This document shows positions 30,568 to 33,145 of a DNA stretch of 64,000 nucleotides, in pieces; the first letter of the stretch is position 1; every line of letters starts with the position of its first letter. Both the position numbers and the translations under genes were made by a program. A model generated the notes under the pieces. It was not told the DNA's origin and searched no databases. It worked only from the letters and a program-made list of their open reading frames with translations. Origin of the DNA: Crocinitomicaceae bacterium (GTDB lineage Bacteria; Bacteroidota; Bacteroidia; Flavobacteriales_D; Crocinitomicaceae); contig JABURP010000127.1 in NCBI GenBank assembly GCA_014762645.1, positions 44,379 through 108,378 of the forward strand, given 5' to 3'.

Positions 30568-31977
30568 ATGTATAGATTGATTTCCATATTGCTTGTGATT
30601 CTGCCAATGATCTCTCATGGCCAGGATAGCCTGTTGGCAAATATGATGACATTTCAACAGTACATAACGCTTGTGAAACAACACCATCCCATGTCTCAGC
30701 AGGCGCGATTGAATAAAGACTTAGGAGACGCTTATTTATCCAGGTCTAAAGGTGTTTTTGATCCCGTATTAACTGGAAATGCAAATCAAAAGTATTTTAA
30801 CGAGCAGCAATATTATAGTATTATAAATGGCCAATTAAAAATACCAACCTGGTTTGGTGTTTCATTTAACTCAGGATACGATATCAACTCAGGAGCTTAT
30901 CTAAACCCAGAGCGAACACTTCCAGACGCCGGACTGTGGTACGCCGGATTAAATGTAGCGCTTGGTAAAGGACTAATCATAGATGAGCGGCGCGCAGAAT
31001 ACAAGAAAGCCCAGATTTTTGCAGAAAGTGCTTTGCAGCAACAAATCATTCTTTTGAATGAACTCTACCTAGAAGCATCAATGGCCTACTGGGACTGGTG
31101 TAAATCATATAATAAACTACTTGTGTACCAGGATGCTGTAGACAATGCCAATACGCGATTTGAAAACATAAAACAAAGCGCGATTGCTGGAGATAAACCT
31201 TTTATTGATACGCTTGAAGCCCATGTCCAATTACAAAGATGGCTTTACCACCTGTTGGATGCAGAGCTTGAGTATTTAAACAGCACGGCTTTATTAGAAA
31301 TATATATGTGGCAAGATGGTTATATACCTGTTGAATTGGATACGACTATAATACCCCCTGCCATTTCTGAGATATCCATTAATAATGTGAATCCTGAAAT
31401 AGCGCTTAGAGTTGACTCGCTTAAAAACTCACATCCCGAATTGCTATTAACTCAGTATAAAATAAATCAGAAAAAAGTGGATATTGATCTGAGCAGGAAC
31501 AATTTACTACCAGATATCAACCTTAAATATAACGCGCTAACTCATGCGGGTGATGGTGATCTTTCAGATAATTTTAGTTTAAATAACTATACCTGGGGAG
31601 CTCAGGTGAAGATACCTATGTTACTTAGAAAAGAGCGAAATGATCTACGCATCAATAAAGTAAAACTAGAGATGCTTCAAAATGATTTGGAATTTAAGCG
31701 AGAGCAGGTTGAATACAAAATTGAAGCTTCTTTGAATACTTGGGCAACGAGTTACGAGCAACTTAAGTTGTGGCAACAGACAACTCAGAACTATAAACGA
31801 TTACTTGAAAGTGAAGAGGTACTTTTCAAAATTGGAGAAAGTAGCCTTTTTATGGTTAATAGTAGGGAACAAGCATATATTAAAGCCCAATTGAAGCTGA
31901 TAGATACCATGATCAATAATAAAAAAGCAGCTTTAAAGTCGTTGTATGCTTTCGGAGTTATTCATAATGAAATTTGA
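30568..31977 (+). CDS. TolC family outer membrane protein
   Basis: Signal peptide; outer-membrane efflux protein architecture ('LLTQYKINQKKVDIDLSRNNLLPDINLKY'); last in the export operon. Confidence 0.88.
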   Translation: MYRLISILLVILPMISHGQDSLLANMMTFQQYITLVKQHHPMSQQARLNKDLGDAYLSRSKGVFDPVLTGNANQKYFNEQQYYSIINGQLKIPTWFGVSFNSGYDINSGAYLNPERTLPDAGLWYAGLNVALGKGLIIDERRAEYKKAQIFAESALQQQIILLNELYLEASMAYWDWCKSYNKLLVYQDAVDNANTRFENIKQSAIAGDKPFIDTLEAHVQLQRWLYHLLDAELEYLNSTALLEIYMWQDGYIPVELDTTIIPPAISEISINNVNPEIALRVDSLKNSHPELLLTQYKINQKKVDIDLSRNNLLPDINLKYNALTHAGDGDLSDNFSLNNYTWGAQVKIPMLLRKERNDLRINKVKLEMLQNDLEFKREQVEYKIEASLNTWATSYEQLKLWQQTTQNYKRLLESEEVLFKIGESSLFMVNSREQAYIKAQLKLIDTMINNKKAALKSLYAFGVIHNEI

Positions 31978-32058
31978 TACCGTATTCCGTTTCAGTGATC
32001 CAGAAAAATAAGTCAGAATAAAGCAAGTAAAGTAAGTTCGGTTTTTCATTGAATTATA

Positions 32059-32066
32059 TATCTTTG
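32059..32066 (+). promoter_or_regulatory. Bacteroidetes -7 promoter motif for tRNA-Ala
   Basis: TATCTTTG (TAnnTTTG) 12 nt before the mature tRNA 5' end. Confidence 0.55.
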
Positions 32067-32078
32067 CCGGACTGTATT

Positions 32079-32152
32079 GGGGATGTAGCTCAGTTGGCTA
32101 GAGCGTTTGACTGGCAGTCAAGAGGTCGTGGGTTCGAATCCCATCTTCTCCA
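32079..32152 (+). tRNA. tRNA-Ala (anticodon GGC)
   Basis: GGGGATG TA GCTC AGTTGGCTA GAGC G TTTGA CTGGCAG TCAAG AGGTC GTGGG TTCGAAT CCCAT CTTCTCC A; loop CTGGCAG gives anticodon GGC; G3:U70 pair (Ala identity element); one T6-T67 acceptor mismatch; CCA not encoded. Confidence 0.92.
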
Positions 32153-32155
32153 CGA

Positions 32156-32183
32156 AAGCACAACTCTTTGTTGTGCTTTTTTT
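32156..32183 (+). terminator. Intrinsic terminator after tRNA-Ala
   Basis: AGCACAAC-TCTTT-GTTGTGCT followed by a T run. Confidence 0.75.
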
Positions 32184-32186
32184 ATT

Positions 32187-32456
32187 ATGTATTATATGTA
32201 TATCCTATATTCTACTTCAAAGGACCGATATTATGTCGGGCAATCTGATAATCTTGAAGAAAGGTTAAAATCTCATAATTCCGGGATTTCCAGATATACA
32301 GCTATTGCTAGGGATTGGGAGATTGTTCATACTGAGAAATTCGAGAATAGAACCGACGCTATCAAAAGAGAACGCCAAATCAAAAAGAAGAAAAGCAGAA
32401 AATACATTGAGTACCTGATTAGCTCAGTTGGTCCCGAAGAATTTCGGGACGTTTGA
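32187..32456 (+). CDS. Small GIY-YIG nuclease family protein
   Basis: MYYMYILYSTSKDRYYVGQSDNLEERLKSHNSGISRYTAIARDWEIVHTEKFENRTDAIKRERQIKKKKSRKYIEYLI...; YIL/YVG GIY-YIG motif; start inferred at 32187 (the longer track ORF translates the tRNA). Confidence 0.88.
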   Translation: MYYMYILYSTSKDRYYVGQSDNLEERLKSHNSGISRYTAIARDWEIVHTEKFENRTDAIKRERQIKKKKSRKYIEYLISSVGPEEFRDV

Positions 32457-32500
32457 CTGGCAGTCAAGAGGTCGTGGGTTCGAGTCCCATCTTCTCCACG
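32420..32500 (+). repeat. tRNA-Ala-derived duplicate (tRNA-like remnant with altered D-arm)
   Basis: TAGCTCAGTTGG + hairpin GTCCCGAAGAATTTCGGGAC + GTTTGACTGGCAGTCAAGAGGTCGTGGGTTCGAGTCCCATCTTCTCCA; 3' part identical to the tRNA at 32104-32152 except one A->G in the T loop. Confidence 0.88.
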
Positions 32501-32501
32501 A

Positions 32502-32530
32502 AAGCACAACTCTTTGTTGTGCTTTTTTTT
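32502..32530 (+). terminator. Duplicated copy of the tRNA-Ala terminator
   Basis: Same GAAAGCACAACTCTTTGTTGTGCTTTTTTTT as at 32156-32183. Confidence 0.75.
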
Positions 32531-32641
32531 GTGCGTACCTGGCACCCTCTATTAGTTTGAAAAGATAAAATTATCACGTTATTACAAATCTTTCAAAATA
32601 AATTCTGAAATTATATACCCAACTAAAGCTGCTATTAAATA

Positions 32642-33145
32642 ATGAAAATAGAATTGATACAGGGAGACATAACAAAAATAGAAACAGATGCCATTGTTAA
32701 TGCGGCGAATAATTCTCTGATGGGAGGCGGTGGTGTCGACGGTGCCATTCACCGAGCGGGAGGGAAAGCTATCCTGGAAGAATGCATGCAAATAAGAAAG
32801 CGCCAGGGAGGCTGCGAAACCGGTGAAGCTGTGATTACCACAGCCGGGGAATTACCGGCAAAATATGTTATTCATACGGTTGGTCCTATTTGGAACGGAG
32901 GTGAATCTGGTGAAAGAAATCTGTTGGCTAATTGTTATGTCAATAGCCTTAAAGTAGCAGAAAATAATCAGGTCAAAACAATTGCTTTTCCAAATATCAG
33001 TACCGGTGTTTACAAATTTCCAAAACAACTTGCTGCAGAAATTGCCATAAATACGGTAAGGGAAAATCAATTAGTGGATAAGGTTATTTTCGTCTGTTTT
33101 GATGATGAAAATTATGACATATACAAAGAGATACTTGAAGCCTAA
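32642..33145 (+). CDS. Macrodomain protein, O-acetyl-ADP-ribose deacetylase type
   Basis: '[26 protein letters not shown]', 'IHTVGPIW', '[12 protein letters not shown]'. Confidence 0.95.

What the first reader, a model, noticed from the sequence alone, without database searches (positions are those of the whole stretch)
32079..32531. tRNA-Ala(GGC) - GIY-YIG nuclease - duplicated tRNA 3' half plus terminator: candidate tRNA-targeting mobile unit
A tRNA-Ala(GGC) gene with its terminator (32079-32183) is followed three nt later by an 89-codon GIY-YIG ORF (32187-32456). Next comes a second copy (32450-32530) of the tRNA segment from the anticodon stem through the T arm, discriminator base and terminator. 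The copies (32104-32183 vs 32450-32530) differ by one A->G in the T loop and one T in the T run. The nuclease ORF is thus bracketed by direct repeats of tRNA 3' sequence. This resembles the target-site duplication expected if a homing-type element inserts at a tRNA and rebuilds its 3' end. GIY-YIG is a known homing-endonuclease and repair nuclease fold; mobility at this tRNA is inference.
Basis: partly seen in the sequence, partly recalled or inferred. Interest (0 to 1): 0.8.

Follow-up and report, generated by a model that had tools for sequence, protein, structure and literature searches.

The report
Tiny nuclease elements invading tRNA genes
A gene for a very small DNA-cutting enzyme sits beside a tRNA gene, between an intact tRNA and a broken copy of it, and the same arrangement recurs at many different tRNA genes across the Bacteroidota, which points to a widespread, apparently undescribed family of mobile elements of about 270 bases that insert at tRNA genes without destroying them.

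Summary
The window holds tRNA-Ala(GGC) with its terminator, a GIY-YIG ORF, then an 80-bp repeat of the tRNA 3' part plus terminator (79/80 identical). Five of six GIY-YIG genes of this family in this genome lie next to a tRNA, each with a broken tRNA copy on its other side. In 80 named relatives of one clade, 58 sit just downstream of tRNA-Met(CAT). In 88 gaps inside broken tRNA copies, 75 are edge-to-edge hairpins; palindrome type and tRNA isotype follow the nuclease tree. One empty/occupied pair with both flanks matching shows a 341-bp insertion: a 270-bp core (ORF plus terminal palindrome) and a 71-bp duplication that leaves the tRNA intact. A same-genus relative has a syntenic, empty tRNA-Ala site for the window. 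Best reading: a homing-like selfish element. Cutting and transfer are inferred, not shown. It fails tested features of integrase elements, REP/RAYT and classical homing genes. I found no description of it in the paper library.

The parts
32079..32153 (+). intact tRNA-Ala(GGC), the target gene, still complete
   Evidence: syntenic ortholog without insertion in G004
32104..32183 (+). repeat copy 1: tRNA positions 26-75 plus terminator (80 bp)
32154..32183 (+). intrinsic terminator of the tRNA gene (GAAAGCACAACTCTTTGTTGTGC + T run), inside the repeat
   Evidence: sequence; terminators duplicated with the tRNA in 43 of 77 comparable loci against 0% in controls
32184..32449 (+). putative mobile core, 266 bp: GIY-YIG ORF followed by a D-arm fragment and the terminal palindrome
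   Evidence: core lies exactly between the two repeat copies and ends in the palindrome; compare the 270-bp core in the G001/G024 pair
32187..32456 (+). GIY-YIG nuclease ORF, 89 aa; conserved Y5, Y16, G18, R26, E62
   Evidence: profile similar to UPF0213 proteins and SLX1 structures
32420..32431 (+). tRNA positions 8-19 in the broken copy (TAGCTCAGTTGG)
32432..32449 (.). perfect palindrome TCCCGAAGAATTTCGGGA replacing tRNA positions 20-25 in the broken copy
32450..32529 (+). repeat copy 2: displaced tRNA 3' part plus terminator
30568..31977 (+). outer membrane efflux (OEP) gene upstream; synteny anchor, not part of the element
   Evidence: neighbour of the empty tRNA-Ala in G004

Best explanation
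The locus is one copy of a widespread family of very small mobile elements that target tRNA genes. The unit is about 270 bp: a GIY-YIG nuclease ORF with a clade-specific palindrome at one end (3' end in the type seen here, 5' end in a mirror-image type). It sits at a tRNA gene, flanked by a long direct repeat (71 bp in the best pair, 80 bp here) made of the tRNA part beyond the palindrome plus the terminator, so that one complete tRNA always remains and the displaced half is broken by the palindrome. Shown: the anatomy, its recurrence at many isotypes, the presence/absence pairs, and the co-variation of nuclease clade with isotype and palindrome type. Inferred mechanism: homing-like spread. 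The nuclease cuts a tRNA gene that lacks the unit, in or next to the arm that the palindrome replaces (positions 38-47 in tRNA-fMet). The left end (tRNA 1-37 plus upstream flank) then pairs with the intact copy of an occupied allele, synthesis copies the rest of the tRNA, terminator, ORF and palindrome, and the right end (position 48 onward) anneals to the displaced half. That yields exactly the observed product: intact tRNA, terminator, ORF, short tRNA piece, palindrome, host 3' half, terminator. The palindrome would keep the displaced half from being cut or from being a tRNA. Unequal recombination between repeats gives the tandem arrays.
For: Own genome: five of six full-length GIY-YIG genes of the family touch tRNAs, with broken tRNA copies on the other side. 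Family: 46 of 60 genomes have a match; most of the loci examined carry a tRNA and a broken copy. Phylum: 73 of 118 genomes at E<=1e-8, with the same layout at Asn, Asp, Ala, Ser, Val, Thr, Lys, Pro, Leu and Arg. 80 named relatives chosen by protein only: 58 lie just downstream of tRNA-Met(CAT); 59 of 62 with an upstream tRNA have a partial copy downstream. Empty/occupied pair G024/G001: matching upstream DNA and tRNA, 270-bp core plus 71-bp repeat, matching DNA beyond. One-sided pairs: window/G004, fMet G046/G030 and G017/G037, Val G030 or G058/G046. 75 of 88 gaps in broken copies are edge-to-edge hairpins; stem covariation 22 double changes, 144/144 cells paired. Nuclease tree: isotype 15 changes against 29.6 shuffled, palindrome type 22 against 39.7; Met-clade nucleases at tRNA-Val(GAC) or tRNA-Arg keep Met-type palindrome sequence (L198, L222, L213). 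About 9 nt left of the palindrome match the tRNA in at least 90% of 48 loci although the ORF stops earlier in 39, as expected of a homology arm. Tandem arrays of 3 and 8 units. Phage GIY-YIG SegB cuts inside tRNA genes and drives recombination-dependent tRNA amplification (PMC13096335).
Against: No cleavage, transfer or excision was observed. The retained tRNA is identical to the empty-site tRNA, so the resident nuclease should cut its own host gene unless the site extends further, expression is low, or cutting needs a DNA structure; classical homing genes disrupt their own site. An 85-89 aa protein has little room for a sequence-specific DNA-binding domain, and its closest solved relatives by sequence are UPF0213 and the structure-specific nuclease SLX1. 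No relative was found in IMG/VR viral contigs, and only weak, <60% identical matches in phages and plasmids, so no vector is known. The nuclease tree rests on about 80 columns and follows taxonomy partly, so part of the distribution may be vertical. In several loci the GIY-YIG gene has no tRNA nearby. GIY-less broken copies with palindromes also exist.
Confidence: 0.6

Rival explanations
1. Transposon-like insertion rather than homing: the nuclease makes two widely staggered nicks, one at a tRNA arm and one after the terminator hairpin, the ORF-plus-palindrome core joins there, and fill-in makes the 71-80 bp duplication. The hairpins would be recognised as DNA structures, as SLX1-type nucleases do.
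For: The core ends exactly at a palindrome and the repeat runs from there to the terminator. Closest solved relatives by sequence include SLX1. Insertion points lie in tRNA loops or arms (D, anticodon, T).
Against: I know of no enzyme that makes 70-80 nt staggers in this way. Only one end has a palindrome, and no joining activity is encoded. The tRNA-matching piece beside the palindrome is not needed in this model.
Confidence: 0.15
2. Mini integrative element: the repeats are attL/attR of a tyrosine-integrase system acting in trans, with the GIY-YIG gene as cargo.
For: Integrases use tRNA 3' ends and restore the gene. G111 appears to hold integrase-type islands in tRNA-fMet with a 3'-half copy at positions 32-74.
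Against: No integrase in the 266-270 bp unit. The repeat begins at a nuclease-clade-specific palindrome at varying tRNA positions (26, 44-50, 54-64), not at a fixed att core. Mirror-image 5' units exist. In G111 the island boundary (32) differs from the palindrome boundary (48).
Confidence: 0.08
3. In-place segmental duplication without true mobility: a resident nuclease breaks the tRNA region and recombination duplicates it, as SegB does in phage T6.
For: Tandem arrays; SegB precedent.
Against: The empty relative G024 has no trace of the 270-bp core at this site, so something came in or was wholly lost; duplication alone does not make clade-specific palindromes.
Confidence: 0.1
4. A vertically inherited, non-mobile gene that happens to sit beside tRNAs, with patchy loss.
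For: Nuclease clades partly follow taxonomy.
Against: Near-identical unconstrained terminators in both copies (30 of 77 at 90% or more) imply recent events or continued conversion. Many isotypes are occupied, presence is patchy among species of one genus, and tandem arrays occur.
Confidence: 0.07

Closest known systems
Phage T4/T6 SegB (free-standing GIY-YIG homing endonuclease beside tRNA genes; PMC13096335)
   Same: GIY-YIG nuclease gene next to tRNA genes; cuts inside tRNA genes; recombination makes tandem tRNA-containing repeats; many isotypes.
   Different: Phage-borne. The sections read describe no terminal palindrome, no tRNA arm replaced by a hairpin and no rebuilding of a chromosomal tRNA. 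The present family is chromosomal across Bacteroidota, about 85-89 aa, isotype-specific by clade.
UPF0213 (BH0048, EF2693) and SLX1 GIY-YIG domains
   Same: Closest solved structures by profile search (E about 1e-14 and 1e-8); minimal GIY-YIG domain.
   Different: Not known as mobile genes; SLX1 is a subunit of a structure-specific repair nuclease (own knowledge).
Integrative elements in tRNA genes (tyrosine integrases)
   Same: A copy of a tRNA end keeps the tRNA gene intact after insertion.
   Different: Those carry an integrase and kilobases of cargo; here about 270 bp and only a nuclease, boundary at a palindrome, and 5' units too.
REP / REPtron (RAYT) palindromes (PMC3733652)
   Same: Short palindromes linked to a mobility protein; that paper reports CGTC-tagged palindromes in Bacteroidetes and Chlorobi without a dedicated transposase.
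   Different: RAYTs are IS200-like transposases; here a GIY-YIG ORF, usually one palindrome per unit, inside tRNA copies.

Membership tests
Free-standing homing endonuclease gene | Encodes an endonuclease of a homing fold with intact catalytic residues | tested here: met
   PF01541 E 1.6e-16; Y5, Y16, G18, R26, E62 invariant in 22 sequences
Free-standing homing endonuclease gene | Present/absent at the same site in close relatives | tested here: met
   G001/G024 with both flanks; window/G004 upstream side only; further pairs
Free-standing homing endonuclease gene | Insertion removes its own recognition site from the occupied allele | tested here: not met
   The retained tRNA and terminator in G001 match the empty allele (one base differs just after the terminator hairpin); only the displaced copy is disrupted
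Free-standing homing endonuclease gene | Cuts the empty allele and is copied into it | not testable with these tools
   needs enzyme assay and crosses
Tyrosine-integrase integrative element | Integrase gene in the element | tested here: not met
   266-bp core holds only the GIY-YIG ORF
Tyrosine-integrase integrative element | tRNA-end repeat that restores the tRNA | tested here: met
REP/RAYT (REPtron) | IS200-like RAYT transposase in the unit | tested here: not met
   only PF01541 and the related PF10544 match; the 266-bp core has no room for a RAYT
Classical insertion sequence | Transposase, terminal inverted repeats, short target duplication | tested here: not met
   no transposase; palindrome at one end only; 71-80 bp repeat
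Group I intron with homing ORF | Intron RNA structure interrupting the tRNA | tested here: not met
   no intron family in Rfam scan of 31900-32700; the tRNA is uninterrupted
Phage Seg (SegB) family | Close sequence relationship to Seg proteins | not tested
   no tree with Seg proteins was made

The most novel reading that the evidence does not exclude
A categorically new class of mobile element: about 270 bp, a single ~85-residue GIY-YIG protein plus a cognate hairpin, moving into tRNA genes by an unknown mechanism in which the hairpin flanked by tRNA sequence is the working part, either as a structured DNA end or as a transcribed hairpin RNA whose flanking tRNA sequence guides the nuclease to the matching tRNA gene.
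Probability: 0.3. Interest if true: 0.93.

Novelty: new variant of a known kind. Interest (0 to 1): 0.82.

Why it matters
If right, a large share of Bacteroidota genomes (73 of 118 sampled match the nuclease at E<=1e-8) carry relatives of a selfish element that targets some of the most conserved genes of the cell and avoids killing the host by leaving a complete tRNA behind. At about 270 bp it would be among the smallest self-encoded mobile units. It would account for tRNA fragments and hairpins beside tRNA genes, and it gives a chromosomal counterpart to phage SegB. Clade-specific pairing of nuclease, palindrome and tRNA isotype makes the mechanism directly testable with a small protein and short DNA.

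Tried and rejected
Integrase-only origin: considered because G111 has island-type copies of tRNA-fMet, rejected for the GIY units because boundaries differ. Viral vector: two IMG/VR scans found nothing. Plasmid/phage carriage: only distant GIY-YIG proteins. A scan for a dead-Met signature used the pattern TTCATATCCG..CGGA, which fits elongator but not initiator tRNA-Met; its hits look like chance, so no prevalence was drawn from it. A named-genome scan with the broad alignment failed for lack of conserved stretches; the Met-clade alignment was used instead. Taxonomic incongruence of the nuclease tree is too weakly resolved to prove transfer. Control genomes without detected GIY (G022, G053) have 3 of 39 tRNAs with partial copies, all of a different 17-nt 3'-end type, against 8 of 32 in the window genome (Fisher p 0.055): suggestive only. 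Assembly artefact rejected because the layout recurs in many independent assemblies, including a single-contig genome (G058).

Full report
What is in the window. A tRNA-Ala(GGC) gene (32079-32153) with its terminator is followed by an 89-codon GIY-YIG ORF (32187-32456) and then by a second copy of tRNA positions 26-75 plus the terminator. The two copies, 32104-32183 and 32450-32529, are 79/80 identical. Between ORF and repeat lie a fragment of the tRNA D arm (32420-32431) and a perfect palindrome TCCCGAAGAATTTCGGGA (32432-32449), which replaces tRNA positions 20-25. The sequence between the two repeat copies, 32184-32449, is 266 bp and ends exactly with the palindrome.

The same genome. Six full-length relatives of the ORF exist in G000. 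Five lie directly beside a tRNA: Ala (window), Gly, Leu(TAA), Arg(CCT) and Pro. With about 36 tRNAs in 4.2 Mb this cannot be chance. In the other four tRNA-linked cases the order is mirrored: a broken 5' part of the tRNA, the ORF, then the intact tRNA. The broken 5' parts again carry inserted sequence at tRNA loops, for example CCTGCCTGCCGGCAGGCAGG in tRNA-Arg.

The family and the phylum. 46 of 60 genomes of the same family have a match. Mapping tRNAs and tRNA fragments around these shows two layouts: 3' type (intact tRNA, terminator, ORF, broken 3' part) and 5' type (broken 5' part, ORF, intact tRNA). In a phylum sample 73 of 118 genomes match at E<=1e-8, and the layouts recur for Asn, Asp, Ala, Ser, Val, Thr, Lys, Pro, Leu and Arg tRNAs, including arrays of 3 (L157) and 8 (L153) units. 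Some matches have no tRNA nearby, so the protein family is broader than the tRNA-linked elements. A protein-only search of named genomes with the Met clade returned 80 loci, among them Fluviicola, Gramella, Mucilaginibacter, Niastella, Pedobacter and Cyclobacterium, and also Ignavibacteria, Cloacimonadota and Chlorobiota bins. 58 of the 80 lie within 600 nt downstream of tRNA-Met(CAT); 59 of the 62 with an upstream tRNA have a partial tRNA copy downstream.

The palindrome. In the Met loci the broken copy reads ...GGGCTCATA, then a palindrome such as TCCGTCAGCTGACGGA, then position 48 onward. Across isotypes, 75 of 88 distinct gaps inside broken copies are hairpins that span the gap edge to edge, and 73 beat shuffles at p<=0.05. 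Twenty-four variants of the 16-nt form keep all six pairs in all sequences, with 22 cells changed on both sides; no shuffle reached this. The variants were collected as palindrome-like sequences, so the 100% pairing is partly by selection; the diversity of paired bases is the informative part. About 9 nt to the left of the palindrome match the tRNA in at least 90% of 48 loci, although the ORF has usually stopped before, so this looks like a DNA-level requirement.

Specificity. On the nuclease tree the tRNA isotype needs 15 changes against 29.6 when shuffled, and palindrome type 22 against 39.7. Nucleases of the Met clade that sit at tRNA-Val(GAC) (L198, L222) or tRNA-Arg (L213) have Met-type palindrome sequence. 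So the palindrome goes with the nuclease. Trees of 80 columns are weakly resolved and these counts show clustering only.

Insertion. At tRNA-fMet of two species of one genus (G001, G024) the upstream DNA and the tRNA match, and G001 has 341 extra bp: a 270-bp core beginning two bases before the ORF start and ending in the palindrome, and a 71-bp repeat of tRNA position 48 through the terminator; the DNA from the second tRNA part onward matches the empty genome at 93%. For the window, the same-genus genome G004 has the efflux gene, tRNA-Ala(GGC) and a terminator with neither ORF nor repeat, but the downstream DNA differs, so that pair is one-sided. Two of about 20 tRNA-Ala(GGC) loci examined in the family are occupied. 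More one-sided pairs. In 43 of 77 comparable loci the terminator is duplicated with the tRNA (identity at least 0.8; controls 0%). In most of 67 loci the core ends in a palindrome and the repeat starts at tRNA position 44-50, 54-64 or 26-32.

Mechanism. The ORF is a minimal GIY-YIG domain with conserved catalytic positions, nearest by profile to UPF0213 structures and SLX1. Phage SegB, a GIY-YIG homing endonuclease, cuts inside tRNA genes and drives recombination-dependent amplification of tRNA segments (PMC13096335). I therefore favour homing-like spread by break repair, as set out in the best explanation. This explains why the intact copy keeps the original promoter side, why positions 38-47 are missing only in the broken copy, and why the repeat includes the terminator. 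It does not yet explain how the occupied cell's own tRNA escapes cutting. Cleavage, transfer and the role of the palindrome are inferred.

Known families. The unit lacks an integrase, a RAYT or other transposase, terminal inverted repeats and an intron. Unlike classical homing genes it leaves the target gene essentially unchanged. So I do not file it in any of these families, though it probably works like a homing gene. Ten literature searches found no description of such elements; the library lacks many subscription papers, so novelty is provisional.

Limits. Most relatives are drafts or metagenome bins and some record names are doubtful. Many units lie at contig ends. Only one two-sided empty/occupied pair was found. 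GIY-less relatives exist and their origin is not settled.

Noticed in passing
L002 (after tRNA-Gly), L004 (after tRNA-Arg), L259, L263, L268, L329, L331, L354: Short GIY-less insertions (about 95-180 bp per unit) that repeat the last ~17 nt of a tRNA (from position 58/59); several share AGAAGTTTATCCCGA-like sequence; also present in genomes without detected GIY genes.
   Followed up: partly
own genome: L009 (tRNA-Val), L027 (tRNA-Asn), L028 (tRNA-Gln), L068 (tRNA-Leu CAA); G111 L289 (tRNA-fMet): GIY-less copies of tRNA 5' parts of about 80-120 bp, some in tandem, upstream of intact tRNAs; most carry a palindrome like the GIY units.
   Followed up: partly
L006 (own genome contig C123): Two tandem GIY-YIG genes with palindromes and a repeated terminator-like segment (CTGGAGGAATAGAAAACCCTGAGATG...), next to no recognisable tRNA; target not identified.
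   Followed up: partly
G111 C31:36911-69556 and C34:6889: What look like integrase-type islands in tRNA-fMet with a 3'-half copy at positions 32-74; one such copy is followed by the array of 8 GIY units.
   Followed up: partly
L002, tRNA-Gly and tRNA-Leu copies; L061 tRNA-Phe copy: Longer two-hairpin inserts (about 87 nt, with ...GAGAGTCCTC... or GGGATCCTC in the middle) in D or T loops of broken tRNA copies, shared between two isotypes in one genome and seen in another genome.
   Followed up: no
window 32642-33145: Macro-domain protein (PF01661, E 5e-49) just downstream of the element.
   Followed up: no
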